Assembly: GCA_013203465.1 (NCBI GenBank)
Contig: JABMNR010000170.1
Location: forward strand, 1 to 38,044
DNA length: 38,044 nucleotides
Reading direction: 5' to 3'
Origin: Alphaproteobacteria bacterium
GTDB taxonomy: Bacteria; Pseudomonadota; Alphaproteobacteria; Thalassobaculales; Thalassobaculaceae
Below the pieces are notes generated by a model. That model did no database searches. It saw only the letters and a list, made by a program, of their open reading frames with translations, and had not been told where the DNA came from. Shown here one piece after another: positions 10,558 through 21,247 of the stretch (positions within the stretch are counted from its first letter, which is position 1; every line of letters begins with the position of its first letter). Position numbers and translations under genes: made by a program.

Positions 10558-11436
10558 TCACGCCGCCAGCGGCTTGCCGTCCTCGACCGAGGGGCCCGCC
10601 CCGGCGACCGTCGTCCGGTGCATCACCCGGGGGTATTTGCGCTCGTCCCACGGCCGGCCGCGATGCAGGCAGGCGCGGTTGTCCCACATCACCAGATCGC
10701 CCGGCCGCCAGCGGTGGACGTAGCGAAACCGCTCCTGGGTGACGAAATCGATCAGGTGGCGCAGCAACGCCCGGCTCTCGTCCACCGGCCGGCCCTCGAT
10801 ATGGCTGGCGTGCGCGCCGACATAGAGCGCCCTGGCTCCGGTCACCGGGTTGGTGCGCACCAGCTTTTGCCGCACCGCCGGCAACTCCCGGCGATCCTTG
10901 TCGGTCAGCAAGGTCTTGTCGATCAGCCCGCGGCTGTAGAGGAAATCGTGGACCGCGATCAGCGGCTCGTATTCGGCTTGCTCGCCGGCCGACAGCGCGG
11001 CCCAGGCGGCGCGGCCGCTGGCGAACTCGGTCTCGCCGCCCTCCGGCGGCACCATCCGGCCGGACAGCAGCGACGCCTTGGCCGGCACCGGCTTGAACGA
11101 GCTGTCGGTGTGCCACATCTGGTTGCCGACGTTGAACACCATGCGCTTGTCCTTGGGCGGAATCAGCGTCCCGTCGGCGTCGAGATTGGAGAAGATCGCG
11201 ACGTTGGTGCCCTCGCCGCCCGGGTTTGACGAGATCGTCGTCTCCAACGCGCCGAACCGCCGGGAAAACGCCACTTGCTTGGCGTCGTCGAGATCCTGGT
11301 CGCGGAACACCAGCACCGAGCGATCCTCGAACGCCGCCTCGATCGCGGCGAAGTCATCGTCGGACAGGGCCGCGACGTCGAGGCCGGTGACTTCGGCGCC
11401 CAGGACACCGGTGAACGGCGTGATGATTGGCGGCAT
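10558..11436 (-). CDS. TauD/TfdA family Fe(II)/2-oxoglutarate dioxygenase (first copy)
   Basis: The 292-residue protein has the TauD/TfdA layout: N-terminal GVLGAEVTGLDVAAL, then VLVFRDQDL and FSRRFGALE. The metal site is H109-x-D111 in WHTDSSF with the distal H258 in LHRGRPWDERKYPRVMHR. R270 in that stretch is placed to bind 2-oxoglutarate. These enzymes hydroxylate a substrate (taurine, aryloxyacetates, alkyl sulfates, betaines) with loss of CO2 from 2-oxoglutarate. The start at 11436 follows GGAGGGAG at proper spacing and is preferred to an upstream in-frame start. It is divergent from the sulfur-related operon at 11604. The substrate is undetermined, but that neighbour makes an organosulfur compound one reasonable guess. 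Confidence 0.92.
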   Translation of the reverse strand: MPPIITPFTGVLGAEVTGLDVAALSDDDFAAIEAAFEDRSVLVFRDQDLDDAKQVAFSRRFGALETTISSNPGGEGTNVAIFSNLDADGTLIPPKDKRMVFNVGNQMWHTDSSFKPVPAKASLLSGRMVPPEGGETEFASGRAAWAALSAGEQAEYEPLIAVHDFLYSRGLIDKTLLTDKDRRELPAVRQKLVRTNPVTGARALYVGAHASHIEGRPVDESRALLRHLIDFVTQERFRYVHRWRPGDLVMWDNRACLHRGRPWDERKYPRVMHRTTVAGAGPSVEDGKPLAA

Positions 11437-11603: not shown

Positions 11604-12092
11604 ATGCGCGCGTTCGTCACCATCCTTGCCGTCGTCGCGCTGATCGGCGCGGCCGTGCCGGGCGAGACCCGGGCGGAAAACCCCGCGCCGTATTCCGGGA
11701 CCGAGAGTTTCGATACCGGCGCCCCGTTCAAGCCGTTCGTCGACGCCATGCCGGCCGCGATCAAGGGCAACAGCTTCGGGGTTATCGGCATCGCCTGCGC
11801 CAATTGCGCCATCCAATCCAAGTTCAAGGAGACCATCCCCGGCAACCGGGTGTTCCTGTTCTTCCGACCCGACTACGCCCGGCGCATGTTGAAAGCCAGC
11901 ACCGCCGCCGGCATCGAGGCGCCGATCCGGCTCTACGTGACCGAAACCCCGGCCGGCACCGCCCAGGTGACCTATCGCCTGCCGAGCCATGTGTTCGGCG
12001 CCTACGAGGTGGCGGAGCTCACCGCCATGGGCAAGGAGCTGGACACCCGGGTCGCCGCCATCATCGCCGACGCGACCAAGACGGCGAAGTAA
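11604..12092 (+). CDS. Exported DUF302 domain protein
   Basis: The 162-residue protein starts with a Sec-type signal peptide, cleaved probably after TRA near residue 24, so it is periplasmic. The remainder matches DUF302: an N-terminal lysine-free strand, then the pattern FKETIPGNRVFLFFRPDYA, RML and a C-terminal helix. Unlike many DUF302 proteins it carries a C-x-x-C pair (C65, C68, in IACANCAIQ), well placed for a redox or metal role. GAGG 6 nt upstream supports the ATG at 11604. It is followed after 29 bp by the YeeE/YedE permease and then the exported metallo-beta-lactamase-fold gene. That context suggests periplasmic handling of reduced sulfur; this is inference. Confidence 0.88.
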   Translation: MRAFVTILAVVALIGAAVPGETRAENPAPYSGTESFDTGAPFKPFVDAMPAAIKGNSFGVIGIACANCAIQSKFKETIPGNRVFLFFRPDYARRMLKASTAAGIEAPIRLYVTETPAGTAQVTYRLPSHVFGAYEVAELTAMGKELDTRVAAIIADATKTAK

Positions 12093-12121
12093 CAACGCCA
12101 ACGACCGACAGAGGCCGCGCC

Positions 12122-13294
12122 GTGGCCACCACCTTCGTCGACCTGCCGCGCATCCAACGCCCGACCCTGCTGCTCGCGGCGGTGATCGCGGCAGCACTGT
12201 TCGCGACGCTGTGGGGGCAGAGCCAGACCCGCGCCTGGGTGCTGCTGATCGGCCTCGGTCTCGGCGTGTCGCTGTACCACGCGGCGTTCGGCTTCACCGC
12301 CGCCTATCGCCGGGCGATCGAGGACAAGGACCTTTCCGGGATCGCCGCGCAAGTGGTGATGCTGATCGTCGCCATGGTGCTGTTCGCCCCGATGCTGACG
12401 GCGGGCGAGGTGTTCGGCCACCGGGCCGGCGGTGCCGTCGCCCCGGTCAGTGTGGCGATGCTGACCGGCGCCTTCGTCTTCGGCATCGGCATGCAACTCG
12501 GCGGCGCCTGCGCCTCGGGCACGCTGTTCACCGTCGGCGGCGGCAACAGCCGGATGATGGTCACCCTGGTGTTCTTCTGCCTCGGCTCGTGGTGGGGCAC
12601 GCTCGATCTGGCGTGGTGGCGGGCACTGCCCGGCCTGCCGCCGATCGCGCTGGGCAAGGAGATCGGCTACGGCCCCGCCGTCGCGTTGCAGGCCGGGTTG
12701 CTGATCCTGGTACTGGCCGGGCTGTACCGCTTGGGCGCGCGGATGCACAAACCGCTCGGCTGGGGCGGGAGTTTCGCCTGGCACAAGCTGCTGCAAGGGC
12801 CGTGGCCGTTGCTGTGGGGGGCGTTGGGGTTGGCGTTGCTGAACGCGGCGATGCTGATGGTGACCGGCCAGCCCTGGGGCGTGACCTGGGGTTTCACCCT
12901 GTGGGGCGCCAAGGCGATGGCCGCACTGGGTTGGGAGCCGTCGACCAGCGCCTATTGGTCCCAGGGTTGGACCAGCGGCGCGCTCGACCGCTCTATCCTC
13001 AGCTCCAGCGTGTCAGTGTCCAACATCGGCATCCTGATCGGCGCGTTGGCCGCCGGCTCGCTGGCCGGCAAGATCGGCCCCACCCTGCGGATCGGCTGGC
13101 GGCCGCTGGCGGCGGCGGTGATCGGCGGGCTGATGATGGGATACGGCGCGCGGCTGGCCTATGGCTGCAACATCGGCGCGTTCTTTTCCGGCGTCGCCTC
13201 GACCAGCCTGCACGGCTGGGCCTGGATCGTCATGGCGCTGCTCGGCTCGGTGATCGGTATTCGCCTGCGTCCATGGTTCCGATTGGGCACGTAA
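12122..13294 (+). CDS. YeeE/YedE family sulfur-compound permease
   Basis: This 390-residue polytopic membrane protein is of the YeeE/YedE (TsuA-like) family, which moves thiosulfate or other reduced sulfur species through a pore lined by conserved cysteines. The hallmark blocks are GIGMQLGGACASGTLFTVGG, with C130, and near the C-terminus YGARLAYGCNIGAFFSGVAS, with a second pore cysteine; C153 lies in FFCLGSWWG. The start is GTG at 12122 with GAGG 7 nt upstream; earlier in-frame codons overlap the DUF302 gene and have no family match. Both halves of the two-fold repeat are present, so it works as a full-length permease. The neighbours DUF302 and MBL point to a sulfur relay. Confidence 0.93.
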   Translation: MATTFVDLPRIQRPTLLLAAVIAAALFATLWGQSQTRAWVLLIGLGLGVSLYHAAFGFTAAYRRAIEDKDLSGIAAQVVMLIVAMVLFAPMLTAGEVFGHRAGGAVAPVSVAMLTGAFVFGIGMQLGGACASGTLFTVGGGNSRMMVTLVFFCLGSWWGTLDLAWWRALPGLPPIALGKEIGYGPAVALQAGLLILVLAGLYRLGARMHKPLGWGGSFAWHKLLQGPWPLLWGALGLALLNAAMLMVTGQPWGVTWGFTLWGAKAMAALGWEPSTSAYWSQGWTSGALDRSILSSSVSVSNIGILIGALAAGSLAGKIGPTLRIGWRPLAAAVIGGLMMGYGARLAYGCNIGAFFSGVASTSLHGWAWIVMALLGSVIGIRLRPWFRLGT

Positions 13295-13410
13295 GTAATG
13301 CTGAAACCAAGCCATGTGGGAGGCATGACGGCGACCGATTGACTCGACAACCCACCAAATACCGTCTTCACTATTTTCTATAATGATGGACCGCCATGGG
13401 AGGCTTTCAC

Positions 13411-14400
13411 ATGTCCACGATCTCCACCACGCTTACCCGCCGCACCGCTCTACTGGGTGCGCTCGGCGCCACCACCGCCCTCGCCGCCGGTGCGTTGCCG
13501 GCCACAACGGCGCACGCCGCCGCCCCGATGCTCGGCGCCACCAAACCGACCGTCTACCGCTTCAAGCTCGGCGGCTTCGAGGTCACCACGATCCTGGACG
13601 GCGCGATCCAGCTCAAGGTACCGCACCCGATCTTCGGCCAGGATCAGACGCTCGAAGACGTGCAGAAGCTGGCCGCCGCCAATTTCCTGCCGACCGAACA
13701 GATGGCGATCAGCTTCTCGCCGGTCGTGGTCAACACCGGCACCGAGTTGGTTCTGTTCGACTCCGGCAACGGCGCCGGCCGGCGGCCCAACGCGGGTGCG
13801 CTGCTCGCCCTGCTGGCCTCGGCCGGTTATTCGGCCGATCAGATCGACGTGGTGGTGGTGACCCACTTCCATCCCGATCACATCGGCGGGTTGATGGAGG
13901 GCGGAGCCGCCGCCTTCCCGAACGCCCGCTACGTCACCGGTCAGGTTGAGTACGATTTCTGGTCGCCGGTGGACAAGGCGTCGGGCCCGACCGAGCGGGT
14001 CGGCAAGCTGGTGCAGGCCAATGTGGTGCCGCTGGCCGCCAAGATGAGCTTCATCGGCGACAACCAGGACGTGGTATCCGGCATCACCGCCGTCGGCGCG
14101 TTCGGGCATACGCCGGGTCATCTCGCCTTCCACGTGGAGAGCGAGGGCAAGCGGCTGATGATCACCGCCGACGCCGCCAACCACTACGTGGTGTCGTTGC
14201 AGCGGCCGGAGTGGCACGTTCGTTTCGACATGGACAAGGCCGGAGCGGTCAGCGCCCGCAAGAAGCTGTTCGGCATGATCGCCGCCGACAAGATCCCGTT
14301 CACCGGCTACCACATGCCGTTCCCGAACGTCGGCTATGTCGAGCCGATGGGCGCCGGCTTCCGTTACGTCCCGGCGGGCTACCAGCTCGATCTCGGCTGA
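13411..14400 (+). CDS. Tat-exported metallo-beta-lactamase-fold hydrolase
   Basis: The 329-residue protein carries a twin-arginine signal (TRRTALLGALGATTALAAG, R10-R11) and is probably exported folded with its metals. The MBL motif THFHPDHIGG is at 151-160 (H152, H154, D156, H157). AFGHTPGH supplies the next histidine, ITADAANHY the bridging aspartate and GYHMPFP the last histidine, so a two-metal centre is complete. The ATG at 13411 follows GGGAGG by 7 nt and is preferred to one 15 nt earlier. A TATAAT hexamer at 13379-13384 could give it a promoter, though no good -35 was seen. Quinolinase/AHL-lactonase-like or persulfide-processing activities exist in this fold; the context suggests sulfur, but this is unproved. 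Confidence 0.92.
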   Translation: MSTISTTLTRRTALLGALGATTALAAGALPATTAHAAAPMLGATKPTVYRFKLGGFEVTTILDGAIQLKVPHPIFGQDQTLEDVQKLAAANFLPTEQMAISFSPVVVNTGTELVLFDSGNGAGRRPNAGALLALLASAGYSADQIDVVVVTHFHPDHIGGLMEGGAAAFPNARYVTGQVEYDFWSPVDKASGPTERVGKLVQANVVPLAAKMSFIGDNQDVVSGITAVGAFGHTPGHLAFHVESEGKRLMITADAANHYVVSLQRPEWHVRFDMDKAGAVSARKKLFGMIAADKIPFTGYHMPFPNVGYVEPMGAGFRYVPAGYQLDLG

Positions 14401-15437: not shown

Positions 15438-15487
15438 AATCATTACCGCAAAACGCGGTGTGTATGCGTGTCACAGAAAGTGATGCA

Positions 15488-16612
15488 ATGTTAAGTGTGA
15501 ACACCAATCCGGCGGCGATGGTCGCCGTGCGCTCGTTCCAAAGCGCCCGTGGGACGACCACCGAGATCACCCAGCGGGTGGGAACCGGGCTTCGTGTCGC
15601 CGGCGCGCTCGACGACGCATCCAATTTCTCCATTGCTCAAGGTGTGCGCGGCATCGTTCGCGCCTGGCAGGCGGTCGATCAGGGCTTGGGCTTCGCCCAG
15701 GGCGCCCTGAAAGTCGCGGTCGCCGGCGCCACCAACATCTCCGACCTGCTCGGCGATCTGAAAAAGAAGTACATCGAGTACTTCGCCACCGACGCGGCGC
15801 GGCAGCCGATCGTCGCCAACGACACCAACCAGATGCTCGATCAGATCGACCTGATGGCCAACGGCGCGACGTTCGGCTCGCTCAACCTGATCAACACCGA
15901 CCAAGCCAGCCTCGCCTTCACCCCGCCGCCGGATCAAGGCACGACCTTCACCTTCAACGGGCCCGGCAGCAACACCCACAACCTGACCGGCACGGCGAGC
16001 GTCATCCAGGTCAACTTCACCGCCACCGGCTCCGGCGGCGGCCAGTTCCGGCTGATCTACAACGGCTCGACCGTCGCCAGCACCGCGGTGAACCCGCCGA
16101 ACGCGTCGGGCTCGCTCAGCTTCAACCACGACCTGAGCGCGGGCAGTTTCACGGTCCAAAAAGTGGGTTCGCCGAACGTTGACCTAGACTACGCCTTCAC
16201 CCAGACGCCGACAGGCCAGAGCGGCATCGAGGGTGATTTCCACGTGCTGAAAAGTGTCGACGGCAGCCAGATCGATGTTCAATTCCGCTCGCTGCTGGCC
16301 ACCGACATCAGCCTGCGCCCGCCGGTGCTGAGCAACGTCGCCCTGGCGATCGGCCAGATCGAGGCGGCCGAGCGCGAGGTCAACGACGCCTTGGGCTATT
16401 ACGGCGCGAAGTACCGCGAGGTCGTGCAGTCCCGGCAATCAGCGCAAGGCTTCATGGACGCGCAGTCCGAAGGCCTGGGCAACATCGTCGACGCCGACAT
16501 GTCCCGCGAGAGCGCGCGGCTGGCCGCCGCCCAGGTGCGTGAAACCTTGTCCCGCGACGTCCTCGGCATCGTGTCCCGATCCAGCTCGGTGATCCTGGAT
16601 CTGTTCGCCTGA
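15488..16612 (+). CDS. Flagellin
   Basis: The 374-residue protein has both conserved flagellin ends. The N-terminal coiled-coil domain begins MLSVNTNPAAMVAVRSFQSA and carries RVGTGLRVAGALDDASNFSI and ISDLLGDLKKKYIEY. The C-terminal domain has LGNIVDADMSRESARLAAAQ and ends with SSVILDLFA. The middle, about 145-265, is a Gly/Ser/Thr/Asn-rich beta region that would face the filament surface. The ATG at 15488 is preferred to one 30 nt earlier because the family starts here; the ribosome site is weak. No other flagellar gene lies in the window, so this is an isolated copy, perhaps a secondary filament subunit. Confidence 0.9.
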   Translation: MLSVNTNPAAMVAVRSFQSARGTTTEITQRVGTGLRVAGALDDASNFSIAQGVRGIVRAWQAVDQGLGFAQGALKVAVAGATNISDLLGDLKKKYIEYFATDAARQPIVANDTNQMLDQIDLMANGATFGSLNLINTDQASLAFTPPPDQGTTFTFNGPGSNTHNLTGTASVIQVNFTATGSGGGQFRLIYNGSTVASTAVNPPNASGSLSFNHDLSAGSFTVQKVGSPNVDLDYAFTQTPTGQSGIEGDFHVLKSVDGSQIDVQFRSLLATDISLRPPVLSNVALAIGQIEAAEREVNDALGYYGAKYREVVQSRQSAQGFMDAQSEGLGNIVDADMSRESARLAAAQVRETLSRDVLGIVSRSSSVILDLFA

Positions 16613-16654: not shown

Positions 16655-17539
16655 TCAGTAGGGCCGGTCGCCGAGCACGGTGCAGCGCCGCATCACCCGA
16701 ATTTCGGCCGCCGTGTCGAACGGCGTCGCGCGGTGGAGCAGGCAGCGATTATCCCACACCATCACATCCCCCGGCCGCCAGACATGGCGGTAAATCCGAT
16801 CCTCCGGCGTGGCGAGGCGGGTGACCTGCTCGATCAACGCGCGGCCCTCATCATACGCCATGCCCTCGATGTATTCGGCATGGTCGCCAACGAAAAGACA
16901 CGGCCGCCCGGTCTCGGGATGGGTGCGGACGATCGGATGGGCGACCGGCGGCACCTCGGCCTTCTGCGCGGCGCTCATCGGGTCTTCGCCGTGGCGCCGG
17001 GTGCGTGAAAAGTCGAGATTGTGCACCGCCCTGAGCGGCGCCAGACGCGCCTTCCACGCCGCCGGCAACCGCTCATAGGCGCCGTACATGTCGGCGAAAT
17101 GGGTCTCGCCGCCGACGCGGGGCACGATCTCGGCGACCATCATGGTCGCTTGGCCGGTCGTCTCCCGCCACGAGCCGTCGGTGTGCCAGTGGAGCGTGCC
17201 CTTGTCGGGGTGCCGGCCGCTCGGTTCGCCGTCGGCGCCGCGATTGCTCAGCACATAGACCTCCGGGTGATCCGGATAGCCTAGATACTGGTTCATCACA
17301 TGGATCTGGACCTCGCCGAAATTCCGGGCGAAGGCGACCTGCAGCGGCGGCGGCACCTCCTGGTCACGGAACAGGATCATCTGGTGCTCAAGGAAGGTCC
17401 GGTAGACGTGGCGGAATACCTCGGGGGTCGCCGCCTCGGCGAGGCCAATGCCGACAACCGCGCGGCCGAAGCCGGCATCGGGGCTCAAGGGCCGAACCTC
17501 GAAAGGTGCCTCCTCGGTCGTCGTGGCCACGACGCTCAT
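16655..17539 (-). CDS. TauD/TfdA family Fe(II)/2-oxoglutarate dioxygenase (second copy)
   Basis: The 294-residue enzyme has a TauD-type core: MILFRDQEVPPPLQVAFARN, then the metal site H119-x-D121 in WHTDGSW and the distal H269 in LLHRATPFDTAAEIRVMRR, with R281 for 2-oxoglutarate. It is only distantly similar to the copy at 10558. It follows the ABC transporter genes on the same strand, 104 bp after the ATPase stop. It is thus probably the oxidative enzyme for the imported compound, as tauD is in tauABCD. The start is not firm: ATG 17539 is chosen, and ATG 17572 is the alternative. The substrate is unknown; the adjoining hydantoinase genes argue against a simple taurine system. Confidence 0.92.
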   Translation of the reverse strand: MSVVATTTEEAPFEVRPLSPDAGFGRAVVGIGLAEAATPEVFRHVYRTFLEHQMILFRDQEVPPPLQVAFARNFGEVQIHVMNQYLGYPDHPEVYVLSNRGADGEPSGRHPDKGTLHWHTDGSWRETTGQATMMVAEIVPRVGGETHFADMYGAYERLPAAWKARLAPLRAVHNLDFSRTRRHGEDPMSAAQKAEVPPVAHPIVRTHPETGRPCLFVGDHAEYIEGMAYDEGRALIEQVTRLATPEDRIYRHVWRPGDVMVWDNRCLLHRATPFDTAAEIRVMRRCTVLGDRPY

Positions 17540-17643
17540 CGCCCGTCCCCCGATCGCTCGATCTCCGGGCATGGTGACCCGATCCACCGAGGGCCGCAAG
17601 GGCCGGACCGGGATCGATCGGACCCGTGGGCCCTACCCGCCTC

Positions 17644-18516
17644 TCACGTCGCGGCCAGCTTCGGGCCCTGGCGCCCGCTGTGCAGCACGCCGCGGGCAAG
17701 GAATATTTCGGTGATCATATCGACCGGTTCGGTGAACCGCGGGTGCTTCCTGGCGGCGAGGCCGCGCGGCCGCGGCAGATCGATGTCGACGATGCGCTCA
17801 ACCCGTCCGGGCCGGGGCGACATCACCACCACCCGGTCGGCCAACAGCACCGCCTCGTCGATGCTATGGGTGATGAACACCACGGTCTGCCGGCTGGCCA
17901 GCCACAGCTCTTCCAGGTCGATGCGCATCTGCTCGCGGGTCAAGGCGTCGAGCGCGCCGAACGGCTCGTCCATCAGCAGCAGCGGCGGGTCGTGGATCAG
18001 CGCGCGGACGATCGCCACGCGCTGCTGCATGCCGCCGGACAGCTCGTGCGGATAGCGGTCCTCGAACCCGGCGAGCCCGACCACGGCCAGCAACGCCCGG
18101 GCGCGGTCGACCAGGTCGGGATCGTTCCGGTGCCGCATCTCGGTCTGCAGCAGAACGTTCTTCAGCACGTTCCGCCACTCAAGCAGGATCGGCTTTTGAA
18201 AGACGATGCCAAGGTTGGTGTGCGGGCCGGACACATCCTGGCCGCCGATCGAGACCTCGCCGGTGGTCGCCGGCAGCAGGCCGGCGATCAGTCGCATCAG
18301 CGTGCTCTTGCCACACCCCGACGGGCCGACGATGGCGGTGAACTCGCCAGCGCCGATCTCCAGGTCGACCAAATCGAGAGCCCGTGTCTCCGACTGGCCT
18401 CCGCGGAACACCTTGCTGAGGGCCGACACGCGAATCTCGGTGCCGACGCGGCCGGCGGAGGGCCCGTCCGGCGCCGCCGGATCGGCGGCGCCGGACGGGT
18501 GTTCACCATGACGCAT
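17644..18516 (-). CDS. ABC transporter ATP-binding protein (NitT/TauT family)
   Basis: The 290-residue protein has Walker A GPSGCGKST at 64-72, a Q-loop at GIVFQKPILLEW, the signature LSGGMQQR, Walker B LLLMDEPFGALD and the switch histidine in VVFITHS. The overall pattern, including MSPRPGRVERIVDIDLPRPR after the switch, is that of SsuB/TauB/NrtD-type importers. It would energise uptake by the permease and binding protein encoded just upstream. Its ATG overlaps the binding-protein stop (TGATG), and an in-frame GTG lies one codon earlier; no ribosome site is visible, so translational coupling is likely. Confidence 0.95.
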   Translation of the reverse strand: MRHGEHPSGAADPAAPDGPSAGRVGTEIRVSALSKVFRGGQSETRALDLVDLEIGAGEFTAIVGPSGCGKSTLMRLIAGLLPATTGEVSIGGQDVSGPHTNLGIVFQKPILLEWRNVLKNVLLQTEMRHRNDPDLVDRARALLAVVGLAGFEDRYPHELSGGMQQRVAIVRALIHDPPLLLMDEPFGALDALTREQMRIDLEELWLASRQTVVFITHSIDEAVLLADRVVVMSPRPGRVERIVDIDLPRPRGLAARKHPRFTEPVDMITEIFLARGVLHSGRQGPKLAAT

Positions 18517-19499
18517 CACTTCGGCAGGAACTCGTTGGTATAGAACGACGTCGCCAGGCGATCGGTCTTCAGCTCGCGATACTCCTTCATCAAGTCGAGG
18601 GTGTGCTGCCAGTCCTCGGCGGCCGCGTAGCCGATGCCCTTGCCCTTCGATGCCGGTGAGTGAATGAGCCCGAGATCGACCGCGAGCTGACCCTTGAGCG
18701 CCGCCGCGTTCACGTCGGGTTTGGCCCTGACCGCCGCGGCGATGGCGGCATCGGGATCCTTCACGCCGGCCTCGTAAGACTTGCGCATGGCCTTGATGAA
18801 GCGGCGGACCATGTCCGGCTTCTCCTTGATGGTGTCCTCGTGGGCGATCACGGTGATGCCGACGGTGTTCACGCCGACGTCGGCGAAGTTGAGCGCCGAC
18901 GCCTTCACGCCCTTCTCCTCAAGCTGGAAGAACTGCGCGTCGGCACTGCCGAGCAGCGCATCCGCCTTTTTCTCCAACACCATGACGACCTTGCCGGCCG
19001 GATCGACGAAGATGGTCTTGATCAGGTCCTTGTTCAGGCCATTGGCCTTGATCACCGCCGGGAACAGCTGGGTCAGCGAGTCGCCGGCGGTCACCGCCAG
19101 CGTCTTGCCCTCCAGGTCCTTCGCCGAGCGGATATTGGCGTCGGCCCGCGAGATCACGCCGAACGGCGAGATGTTCATCGGCGACATGATCGTCTTCACC
19201 GGTATGCCCTTGACGGCCGACAGGATCAGTGTACCGGCGTCGCACAGCCCGAAGGTGTCGTCCTTGGCGCCGACCACCTGGGCGGCAACGCCGGAGCCGC
19301 GACCCTCGTTGATGGTCAGGGTGATCCCCTCATCGCTGAAGTAGCCCCTCTCCTTGCCGAGATAGATCGGCGCGTGGAAGCCGACCATGTACCAGTTGAG
19401 GCGGATCGACACGTCGTCGGCGGCGTGGCCGGCACTCATCGTCAGACCAAACAGGCCGATCGCGGCCACGGCCGAACGGAACAGGGTCTTGCCCATCAT
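18516..19499 (-). CDS. ABC transporter substrate-binding protein (NMT1/THI5-like)
   Basis: The 327-residue protein begins with a Sec signal peptide cleaved after GHA near residue 26, with no lipobox, so it is a soluble periplasmic protein. The mature part reads DVSIRLNWYMVGFHAPIYLG and ERGYFSDEGITLTINEG, the start expected of NMT1/THI5-like and SsuA-like binding proteins. Blocks such as VKTIMSPMNISPFGVISR and LEGKTLAVTAGDSL follow. The ATG at 19499 has GGAGG 8 nt upstream; the ATG at 19505 is too close to it. Known members bind pyrimidine precursors, sulfonates, nitrate or aromatic acids. With hydantoinase genes across the divergent promoter, a cyclic amide or pyrimidine-derived ligand is a fair inference. 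Confidence 0.93.
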   Translation of the reverse strand: MMGKTLFRSAVAAIGLFGLTMSAGHAADDVSIRLNWYMVGFHAPIYLGKERGYFSDEGITLTINEGRGSGVAAQVVGAKDDTFGLCDAGTLILSAVKGIPVKTIMSPMNISPFGVISRADANIRSAKDLEGKTLAVTAGDSLTQLFPAVIKANGLNKDLIKTIFVDPAGKVVMVLEKKADALLGSADAQFFQLEEKGVKASALNFADVGVNTVGITVIAHEDTIKEKPDMVRRFIKAMRKSYEAGVKDPDAAIAAAVRAKPDVNAAALKGQLAVDLGLIHSPASKGKGIGYAAAEDWQHTLDLMKEYRELKTDRLATSFYTNEFLPK

Positions 19500-19592
19500 G
19501 TTCATCTCCTCCCATCGTGCCAGACCTGGACGGCCCGGACCCTTTTGCGTTGCTCGACGGCGTTGTGCGCACCGCCCATTCCCGACATCGGC

Positions 19593-20426
19593 TTACACCA
19601 TGCCCATGCCAGCCCCGTCGACGCGCTGCGAGACGTGCCACGGGATGACCAGCCGCTCGATCAGCTCGACGGCGTAGTAGACAATCAATCCGACGATCGA
19701 CAGCACGATGATCGTGGCGAACACCATCGGTGTCTGCAGGTCGCCGTTGTACTGCAGCAGCAGGTAGCCGAGCCCCTTGTCCGAGGCGACGAACTCAGCC
19801 ACCACGGCGGCGGTCGAGGACAGCGCCGCCGCCACCTTGAGCCCGGTGAAGATGCTTGGCATGGCGTGCGGCAGGCGGATCTTGCGGAAAATCATCCATG
19901 TCCCGGCACCGGTCGAGCGCGCCAGTTCCATGGTCTCCTCGTCGATCGACTTGAAGCCGGCGATCGATGCCACAACGATCGGGAAGAACGACAGCAGGAA
20001 CACCAGAAGCAACTTGGGCGTGAAGCCGAAGCCGAACCAGATGATGAAAAGCGGCGCGATGGCGATCTTCGGGACGATCTGCAGGAACACGATGAGCGGA
20101 TAGGCGGTCCGCTCCACCACCCGGGAATAGGCGATGGCGATGGCCATCGGGATGCTGACGACGACGGCGATAACATAGCCGACGACGATTTCCTCCGCCG
20201 TCACCCAGGTGTGCTTCAGCACATGCAGCCAGCGCTCGGTGAATTCCAGCCAGACCAGGGACGGCGGCGGCAACAGATAGGTCGGCACCGCGAAGACGCG
20301 GACGCCGATCTCCCAGACCACGAACAGCACGATGAAACTGACCAGGATGTAGCGCACCCCGGTCACCCAGACGAGCAGCCGGCGGACGCCTCCCCATGCC
20401 GCGGGCGTATCGGCGGCGGCCGTCAT
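19593..20426 (-). CDS. ABC transporter permease (NitT/TauT family)
   Basis: The 277-residue membrane protein has about six hydrophobic segments and the BPD-permease EAA loop, read here as ETMELARSTGAGTWMIFRKI followed by RLPHAMPSIFTGLKVA. It is the membrane channel of the importer encoded with the binding protein and ATPase downstream. The ATG overlaps the stop of the IclR gene by 4 bp (ATGA), so regulator and transporter are translated together. An earlier in-frame start overlapping the regulator by 72 bp is less likely. Confidence 0.95.
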   Translation of the reverse strand: MTAAADTPAAWGGVRRLLVWVTGVRYILVSFIVLFVVWEIGVRVFAVPTYLLPPPSLVWLEFTERWLHVLKHTWVTAEEIVVGYVIAVVVSIPMAIAIAYSRVVERTAYPLIVFLQIVPKIAIAPLFIIWFGFGFTPKLLLVFLLSFFPIVVASIAGFKSIDEETMELARSTGAGTWMIFRKIRLPHAMPSIFTGLKVAAALSSTAAVVAEFVASDKGLGYLLLQYNGDLQTPMVFATIIVLSIVGLIVYYAVELIERLVIPWHVSQRVDGAGMGMV

Positions 20427-21247
20427 GCGCTCGCCCTCTCGTCGTCGTTCGGCAGGTAGAGCCGCGCCGAGGGCTGCAACTGGCGGACCGGCCACAGCTC
20501 GGACAGCCGGCGCGCCACCTCGACGACGTCGGGCGCGATGTCGTGCAGCCGCCGACGGGTCACCCGCGCCGCCGGGCCGGCGACACTGACGGTACCGACG
20601 GAGGACATGTTGGCCTTGACGCCGGGGATCGCGGCGGCAACCGCGGCCATGCCGGGCTCGCCCTCCTCATAGGCGGTGCCGTAACCCTGCTTGCGGGTGC
20701 GGGACAGCGCCTCGATCAGTCCGGCAACGTCACTGACCGCCCTCGGACCTAGTTCGGCCGGATCGCCGAAGCCCGCGGTGAGGACGATACGGATCGCCTC
20801 CTCGTCGCTCAAGGTGGCGAGCCAAGCCTTGCCGGTGGCGGTCGCCGACACCGTCACCTGCTTGCCGAAGTTGCCATCGTAGCGCAAACCGTAGCGCGCG
20901 CCCTGAGCCTGCGCCACCCAGGTGAGCCCGTCACCGTCGACCATGGCGATGCGGGCAAGCTCGCCGGTGCGTTCGGCCAGGCTGTCCAGCTCCGGCTGGC
21001 AGACGTCGTTGACGCCGCTGTTCGCCAGCAGACGGAAGCCGATGACGGCGAGCCGCATGGTCGGCCGGTAGTGCTGGCTGACAACGTCCTGCTCAAGATA
21101 ACCGCGCTCGGCGAGTTGGGTAAGCAGCCGGTGCGTGGCGCTCTTCGGCAGTCCGAGGGTCAGCGCGATGGCGCTCAGCGCCAGCCCCTTCGGGCTGTCG
21201 ACCAGCAGCTCCAGGATGTCCAGCGTGCGATCGATCTGTTGCGACAT
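20423..21247 (-). CDS. IclR-family transcriptional regulator
   Basis: The 274-residue protein has the two IclR domains. An N-terminal winged helix (QIDRTLDILELLVDSPKGLA, then LTLGLPKSATHRLLTQLAERGYLEQ) is followed by the C-terminal effector domain with YGLRYDGNFGKQVTVSATATGKAWLA and the conserved late KQGYGTAYEE region. It binds DNA as a dimer of dimers and responds to a small metabolite. It is the first gene of the leftward operon, joined by a 4-bp overlap to the permease, and faces hyuA. The start at 21247 matches the family N-terminus. The two GAAC-N3-GTTC elements just upstream are its probable operator. Confidence 0.95.
   Translation of the reverse strand: MSQQIDRTLDILELLVDSPKGLALSAIALTLGLPKSATHRLLTQLAERGYLEQDVVSQHYRPTMRLAVIGFRLLANSGVNDVCQPELDSLAERTGELARIAMVDGDGLTWVAQAQGARYGLRYDGNFGKQVTVSATATGKAWLATLSDEEAIRIVLTAGFGDPAELGPRAVSDVAGLIEALSRTRKQGYGTAYEEGEPGMAAVAAAIPGVKANMSSVGTVSVAGPAARVTRRRLHDIAPDVVEVARRLSELWPVRQLQPSARLYLPNDDERASA

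What the first reader, a model, noticed from the sequence alone, without database searches (positions are those of the whole stretch)
11604..14400. Candidate periplasmic sulfur relay: DUF302, YeeE/YedE permease and Tat-exported MBL protein
Three genes in one direction encode a secreted DUF302 protein with a C-x-x-C pair, a sulfur-compound permease with pore cysteines, and a folded-exported two-metal MBL hydrolase. DUF302 and this MBL type lack a defined joint role. Together they may release or trap a reduced sulfur species in the periplasm and hand it to the permease. A TauD-type dioxygenase is divergently encoded.
Basis: partly seen in the sequence, partly recalled or inferred. Interest (0 to 1): 0.6.

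Follow-up and report, generated by a model that had tools for sequence, protein, structure and literature searches.

The report
DUF302–YeeE sulfur-transport pair, plus hydrolase
Two of the three genes form a widely conserved pair, a secreted protein of unknown function and an unusual two-cysteine member of a bacterial sulfur-importer family, while the third, an exported hydrolase related to lactone- and pesticide-cleaving enzymes, was found beside them only in one bacterial family.

Summary
The trio is real: DUF302 (11604-12092), YeeE/YedE permease (12122-13294), Tat-type MBL hydrolase (13396-14400), all +. The evidence splits it.

(1) DUF302–YeeE is a genuine unit: adjoining in 11 of 11 same-family genomes with a close YeeE and in 35 of 80 named DUF302 loci of several proteobacterial classes, median spacing 11 bases (26 pairs). 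The YeeE falls in a separate 38-row clade that keeps the two cysteines indispensable in TsuA but lacks the third, cytoplasmic one (Gly in 37, Ser in 1). Another branch of that clade pairs with a secreted rhodanese. My reading: a sulfur permease with a dedicated periplasmic partner.

(2) The MBL adjoins only in the window's family, as far as surveyed. Its nearest solved relatives are methyl parathion hydrolase and a lactonase; it groups apart from SoxG.

(3) The CxxC arose once on the tree; DUF302s without it also pair with YeeE.

Against: distant members of all three families recur in Roseobacter sox clusters, so a sulfur role for the MBL is not excluded. This genome shows no SoxY. No function was tested.

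The parts
11604..12092 (+). DUF302 protein, 162 aa, predicted secreted (N-terminal hydrophobic stretch), CxxC at residues 65-68 between a strand and a helix
   Evidence: PF03625 35.6 bits; alignment A1; AlphaFold model pLDDT 89.4; Foldseek 1q9u TM 0.70/0.87
12122..13294 (+). YeeE/YedE-family permease, 390 aa, of the two-cysteine clade (C130, C349; Gly at the TsuA Cys22/25 site)
   Evidence: PF04143 198.9 bits; the solved relatives found are TsuA/YeeE 6leo, 6lep, 8j4c, 8k1r; cysteine columns and tree
13396..14400 (+). MBL-fold hydrolase, 334 aa (or from 13411), RR-type N-terminus; methyl parathion hydrolase / lactonase / SoxG superfamily. Found linked only in this bacterial family
   Evidence: PF00753 67.8 bits; 1p9e methyl parathion hydrolase E 1.7e-54, 36% identity; tree
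10558..11436 (-). TauD/TfdA-family dioxygenase, divergent; flanking gene, not a conserved part
   Evidence: PF02668 227.3 bits; also divergent in G035 (L072/L117), not in the other called loci

Best explanation
The core is a two-gene transport unit: a secreted DUF302 protein and a permease of a distinct two-cysteine YeeE/YedE clade. Most likely the permease takes up a small reduced-sulfur species (thiosulfate, sulfane sulfur or similar) along its two remaining pore cysteines, and DUF302 serves it from the periplasmic side, binding or presenting the species, a place that a secreted rhodanese fills in another branch of the clade. The cytoplasmic cysteine and two of the contacts that TsuA uses to hand thiosulfate to YeeD are gone, so hand-over inside the cell must differ from TsuAB. 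The downstream MBL is a separately useful Tat-exported esterase/lactonase-type hydrolase that sits beside the unit in one bacterial family. Shown by computation: families, conserved pairing, the cysteine pattern, tree placement and the narrow spread of the MBL linkage in the sets surveyed. Inferred: substrate, import direction, DUF302's role and the MBL's substrate.
For: Pairing: 11 of 11 same-family genomes with a close permease have DUF302 directly upstream; 35 of 80 named DUF302 loci have the permease within 400 bases, among them Alpha-, Beta-, Gammaproteobacteria and Hydrogenophilia, 6 of the 35 without a class name; spacing in the 26 pairs my caller resolved runs from -17 to 244 bases, median 11; linkage changes at least 11 times on a quick, weakly resolved DUF302 tree. 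Permease: the 4 PDB sequences found are all TsuA/YeeE; the two cysteines kept match C91 and C293, called indispensable in PMC11582611 section 6. Gly replaces Cys22 in 37 of 38 clade rows, Ser in 1; none of the 38 keeps R98 or E101; the 9 paired permeases left out of that set also have Gly, so 35 of 35 named pairs lack the cysteine. These residues lie at the YeeD interface in PMC11073785 (passages). Rhodanese neighbours: S. meliloti and G050, which group at support 98. Published parallel: a periplasmic CxxC DsbA-like protein is proposed to feed SoxT1A (PMC11582611 section 11). MBL.
Against: DUF302 occurs without the permease in 6 of the 17 same-family genomes that have it and without an adjacent one in 45 of 80 named loci, 7 of which end within 700 bases, so it has uses of its own. 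Outside the family 3 of 4 permease-bearing relatives have no DUF302 hit. The CxxC is absent from 11 loci with an adjacent permease. In Paraburkholderia no sulfur gene is annotated beside the permease. The window genome has no SoxY at E 0.001; of other sulfur genes only TusA was sought there, and one unlinked gene found. Recurrent neighbours elsewhere are haem and cytochrome proteins rather than classical sulfur genes. E. coli and S. thermophila residue numbers were matched by alignment only.
Confidence: 0.55

Rival explanations
1. One reading: the MBL works with DUF302 and the permease on one reduced-sulfur substrate, as a SoxG-like periplasmic metallohydrolase may do beside SoxT.
For: DUF302, a YeeE and two MBLs stand together in a Ruegeria sox plasmid cluster; Sulfitobacter sox clusters carry DUF302 and YeeE between soxF and soxH (PMC11034169, passages); a SoxG-type MBL lies next to a sox-linked YeeE in Rhodobacter CZR27 and in G013; soxG and soxH are called thiosulfate-induced periplasmic zinc metallohydrolases (PMC10221251, passage); SoxG-type and window MBLs share a superfamily; in G030 the MBL stays beside DUF302 though no permease is found.
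Against: The window MBL is 31% identical to the Paracoccus SoxG-position MBL and groups apart from it, while it is 54-56% identical to Pseudochrobactrum and Sinorhizobium enzymes with no YeeE within 5 kb; the Roseobacter DUF302 gives no BLAST match to the window DUF302 and its YeeE is in the other, three-cysteine group; the MBL orthologue is unlinked in five close relatives and, in the 4 loci my caller resolved, 86-160 bases from the gene before it, against a median of 11 for the pair.
Confidence: 0.2
2. The pair serves assembly or protection of periplasmic haem/copper redox proteins (moving thiol or sulfide for maturation) rather than sulfur nutrition or oxidation.
For: Around DUF302, 25 of 80 named loci carry one or more of DUF6969, an FGE-like protein, cytochrome P460 with Cys-rich NPC repeats, multihaem cytochrome, SoxA/TsdA-type cytochrome c or an unnamed secreted protein; 20 of these 25 also hold the permease against 18 of the other 55.
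Against: None of the 36 same-family genomes has DUF6969, and none of these families was recognised among the 32 window genes scanned with Pfam; the loci are related, so the p value (1e-4) overstates independence.
Confidence: 0.15
3. Neighbours without a joint function: inherited synteny only.
For: Within the family the gene order looks inherited and decays piecemeal: trio, pair, DUF302-MBL and DUF302 alone all occur.
Against: At least 11 changes of DUF302-permease linkage on the DUF302 tree, and recurrence in at least four classes with near-overlapping genes.
Confidence: 0.08

Closest known systems
TsuA/YeeE (with TsuB/YeeD), thiosulfate uptake
   Same: Same Pfam family, the solved relatives found, the two pore cysteines kept
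   Different: Cytoplasmic Cys22/25 and the contact residues R98 and E101 absent in 38 of 38 clade rows; the genome's one TusA-family gene is on another contig; NCBIfam TsuA models score 65.7 and 22.8 bits against cut-offs 400 and 645
SoxT1/SoxT2 sulfur importers (Li et al. 2024, PMC11582611, sections 6 and 11 read)
   Same: YeeE family; a periplasmic CxxC protein beside SoxT1A is proposed to present sulfur
   Different: SoxT proteins have three conserved cysteines; the SoxT groups are named for genes in or beside sox clusters. This genome has no SoxY; 6 of 10 sox regions of relatives carry a YeeE of their own, and the three of them put in the tree group apart from the window's
SoxG (sox-cluster MBL; name assigned from gene order, recalled)
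   Same: RR-type N-terminus, MBL superfamily, next to or near a YeeE in sox clusters
   Different: 31% identity, separate starred clade
Methyl parathion hydrolase / dihydrocoumarin lactonase (1p9e, 5hif)
   Same: 36% identity to 1p9e over 299 residues, metal ligands aligned
   Different: MPH groups in another part of the tree, on a long branch; activity of the window enzyme unknown
AidB-family AHL lactonase (NF047979)
   Same: Best NCBIfam model, 122.9 bits over profile 5-271 of 271
   Different: Far below its cut-off of 360 bits

Membership tests
YeeE/YedE family (PF04143) | Score over the curated cut-off along the whole profile | tested here: met
   198.9 bits against 27, profile 1-310 of 310
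TsuA / SoxT | Three conserved cysteines (as stated in PMC11582611 section 6) | tested here: not met
   Gly at the Cys22 site in the window; 37 of 38 clade rows Gly, 1 Ser
SoxT | Encoded in or next to a sox cluster | tested here: not met
   No sox family among 32 window genes scanned; no SoxY in the genome
TsuA | NCBIfam model cut-off | tested here: not met
   65.7 of 400 and 22.8 of 645 bits
TsuA | Transports thiosulfate | not testable with these tools
   Needs an assay
DUF302 (PF03625) | Pfam score and fold | tested here: met
   35.6 bits against 23; Foldseek 1q9u 1.2e-9, 1j3m 5.8e-9
SoxG | Groups with sox-cluster MBLs | tested here: not met
   Separate 99-supported clades of 4 and 13 rows (quick tree)
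MPH/lactonase-type MBL superfamily | HxHxDH and the further His, Asp, His ligands | tested here: met
   Invariant and aligned with 1p9e; ligand list recalled
MPH/lactonase-type MBL superfamily | Lactonase, arylesterase or phosphotriesterase activity | not testable with these tools
   Needs an assay
Tat substrate | Twin-arginine signal | tested here: inconclusive
   RR plus hydrophobic stretch, RR invariant in 10 of 10 aligned orthologues; no signal-peptide program was available

The most novel reading that the evidence does not exclude
DUF302 is the periplasmic half of a new kind of sulfur importer: a two-cysteine YeeE pore that has lost its cytoplasmic YeeD docking site and instead works with a dedicated periplasmic partner (DUF302, or a secreted rhodanese in another branch). 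That would give the DUF302 family a function, and in the window's family an exported MBL would supply the substrate.
Probability: 0.3. Interest if true: 0.65.

Novelty: new variant of a known kind. Interest (0 to 1): 0.45.

Why it matters
DUF302 is an uncharacterised family (Pfam name) that has been reported in sox clusters without a known role (PMC5037610 and PMC11034169, passages). A conserved, tightly spaced partnership with a recognisable sulfur permease, in which the known cytoplasmic hand-over site has been lost, makes its role directly testable and suggests that YeeE permeases can be served from the periplasm. It also warns that the three-gene reading extends to a hydrolase that is linked only locally.

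Tried and rejected
MBL as SoxG: rejected on identity and tree. The permease as SoxT: rejected. CxxC as the cause of pairing: the raw association is strong (25 of 37 CxxC rows against 11 of 44 others, p 1.5e-4) but rests on one change on the tree and one independent pair, so it carries little weight. Sox dependence: SoxY is in 8 of 11 DUF302-permease genomes against 8 of 50 others (p 5e-4), but five of the eight are one genus and three of the 11, including this one, lack it. Cupredoxin idea for the unnamed secreted neighbour (k5): no Pfam match in the two members scanned and no PDB match better than 0.05; left open. A plasmid search with DUF302 found 1 record, with no permease in the stretch fetched.

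Rows dropped: permeases under 330 aa, the fused one of BAL199 and those my gene caller missed were left out of the cysteine count and tree; the 9 paired ones among them were checked afterwards and agree, as far as their fragments reach. One DUF302 row under 110 residues was left out of the tree and 7 short loci out of the linkage trait. The named survey kept the best 80 of 381 loci and overlaps the unnamed relatives (L114, L115, L117 and L118 have the contig lengths of G004, G002, G035 and G013). Gene calls come from a script of mine and fail in some loci, e.g. L073, L118 and L202; family hits there rest on six-frame profile searches. In one search the extents printed for minus-strand frames are numbered on the reverse complement; they were not used. 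The three trees are quick ones; the permease tree has long branches meeting.

Full report
What is there. The three genes exist as described: DUF302 at 11604-12092, Sulf_transp permease at 12122-13294 and an MBL hydrolase at 13396-14400, all on the + strand, with TauD divergent. The window is contig 172 of a genome that shares its family code with genomes whose contigs match Thalassobaculum fulvum, Nisaea and strain BAL199, so I place it in Thalassobaculaceae; its own name was not given. I scanned 32 window genes with Pfam. Besides the trio and the divergent TauD there are an asparaginase, DUF1330, a flagellin, a second TauD with an NMT1-type ABC transporter, hydantoinase A/B, RecQ, two diguanylate cyclases, an arginase and others; no sox or other recognised sulfur-oxidation family.

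The DUF302-permease pair. Of 61 genomes (36 of one family, the window's own included) 19 have a DUF302 match and 16 a permease match. In the family, 17 have DUF302 and 12 a permease match, one of them weak (28% identity). All 11 close ones lie directly downstream of DUF302; 6 of the 17 have DUF302 and no permease. So within the family the permease goes with DUF302 but not the reverse. Outside it, G036 has both but on different contigs, G042 DUF302 only, and G046, G050 and G051 the permease only. In the named survey (80 of 381 loci kept) the permease lies within 400 bases of DUF302 in 35, three more hold it further off, and 42 show none, of which 7 end within 700 bases. Spacing in the 26 pairs that my gene caller resolved, the window's included, runs from -17 to 244 bases, median 11. 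The pairs include Alpha-, Beta- and Gammaproteobacteria and Hydrogenophilia; 6 of 35 have no class name. On a quick DUF302 tree of 80 rows linkage changes at least 11 times while the CxxC changes once. The linkage has therefore been made or broken repeatedly; the CxxC is one clade's trait. Eleven non-CxxC loci are also linked, so the CxxC cannot be essential to the pairing.

The permease is unusual. The PDB sequences found are all Spirochaeta thermophila TsuA/YeeE. In an alignment of 49 sequences, 38 form one clade (support 97) with the window; the 11 others include E. coli TsuA, six sox-linked YeeEs and three other YeeEs found beside DUF302. All 38 keep the cysteines equivalent to C91 and C293, which PMC11582611 (section 6 read) calls indispensable; 37 have Gly and 1 Ser at the Cys22 site; all keep R28, none keeps R98 or E101. 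The nine paired permeases that were left out also have Gly there, which makes 34 Gly and 1 Ser in the 35 named pairs. PMC11073785 (passages) places C293, C91 and C22 in that order through the membrane, C22 at the YeeD interface, with R28, R98, E101 and E261 among the contacts; I did not tally E261. Sox-linked sequences also lack some of these contacts but keep Cys22. The clade has thus lost the cytoplasmic end of the published cysteine relay. The genome's one TusA-family gene is on another contig. In S. meliloti and G050 a permease of this clade follows a two-domain rhodanese that looks secreted from its N-terminus, and the two permeases group together (support 98). In Nostoc it lies next to an O-acetylhomoserine/cysteine synthesis gene and near an arylsulfatase. 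In Paraburkholderia no sulfur gene is annotated beside it. On balance these contexts favour a sulfur substrate.

DUF302. AlphaFold gave a confident model (pLDDT 89.4); the five Foldseek matches at E 0.001 or better are the DUF302 structures 1q9u and 1j3m and three chains of an entry titled as CrcB, none a characterised enzyme. The CxxC sits between a strand and a helix. A role in presenting sulfur is inference; the published parallel is the DsbA-like protein beside SoxT1A (PMC11582611 section 11 read), itself a proposal.

The MBL. Its closest solved relatives are methyl parathion hydrolase (1.7e-54, 36% identity) and a reconstructed dihydrocoumarin lactonase. Besides the window, 10 of the 61 genomes hold an orthologue at 64-79% identity, the one in G002 over 153 residues only. 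Four genomes give the full trio (G000, G004, G013, G035). G030 has DUF302-MBL without the permease. G002 (BAL199) has the front of the permease fused in frame to the end of the MBL, which looks like a deletion or an assembly fault. Five (genus g2, Nisaea among the named) have the MBL elsewhere. Of the 35 named pairs, four have an MBL beside them, all from this family, one being the BAL199 remnant. On plasmids, relatives at 54-56% identity have no YeeE within 5 kb in the two I opened of 807 records with a match.

The result against me. The three families do come together elsewhere. A Ruegeria plasmid has soxC, two cytochromes, a flavoprotein, DUF302, hemA and YeeE, with two MBLs convergent; Sulfitobacter type strains have DUF302 and YeeE between soxF and soxH (PMC11034169, passages); and an MBL of the SoxG kind is next to a YeeE in Rhodobacter CZR27 and in the sox region of G013. 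PMC10221251 (passages) calls soxG and soxH thiosulfate-induced periplasmic zinc metallohydrolases. The members are remote from the window's: MBL 31% identical to the Paracoccus SoxG-position protein, no BLAST match between the DUF302s, permease in the three-cysteine group.

Wider context. Around DUF302 in other bacteria, 25 of 80 named loci hold one or more of DUF6969, an FGE-like protein, cytochrome P460 with NPC repeats, multihaem cytochrome, a SoxA/TsdA-type cytochrome and an unnamed secreted protein; 20 of the 25 also hold the permease against 18 of 55. None of the 36 same-family genomes has DUF6969; outside the family 5 of 25 do. This may point to haem or copper redox proteins as the pair's real clients; I leave it as a rival.

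Literature. Two papers in the library hold both DUF302 and YeeE, of which the Sulfitobacter one concerns their linkage and the other mentions them apart (passages); 27 hold DUF302 at all (listing); none holds DUF6969. I found no paper describing the pair as a unit in these searches; most subscription journals are missing from the library. PMC5248467 and PMC12997753 were seen in listings only; PMC5037610, PMC7760498, PMC10512742 and PMC9068703 in passages.

Noticed in passing
L115:7483-8880 (BAL199); L070:7824-9221: Permease front part fused in frame to the last part of the MBL, open for 465 aa; a deletion or assembly fault, not tested.
   Followed up: partly
L124, L132-L136, L138, L141, L153, L177, L181, L182 and others: Recurrent neighbours of the pair: DUF6969, FGE-like protein, cytochrome P460 and small proteins with Cys-rich NPC repeats, multihaem cytochrome, and a secreted family without Pfam or convincing PDB match (alignment A4).
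   Followed up: partly
L163:5815-6822, L191:2557-3585, L193:5814-6830: A different YeeE group beside DUF302 keeps Cys at the C22 and C91 sites but has Gly at the C293 site.
   Followed up: partly
PDB 7tj1: The entry titled as a Brucella fluoride transporter CrcB has the DUF302 fold by Foldseek, so its title may not describe the crystallised domain.
   Followed up: no
window 16655-21247: A second TauD dioxygenase beside an NMT1-type ABC transporter and an IclR regulator, next to hydantoinase A/B genes; possible sulfonate or pyrimidine uptake.
   Followed up: no
window 15464-16612: Lone flagellin-like gene between unrelated metabolic genes.
   Followed up: no
L217:10876-12099: A 5-aminolevulinate synthase gene lies between DUF302 and YeeE in a Ruegeria sox cluster; also reported for Sulfitobacter (PMC11034169).
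   Followed up: no
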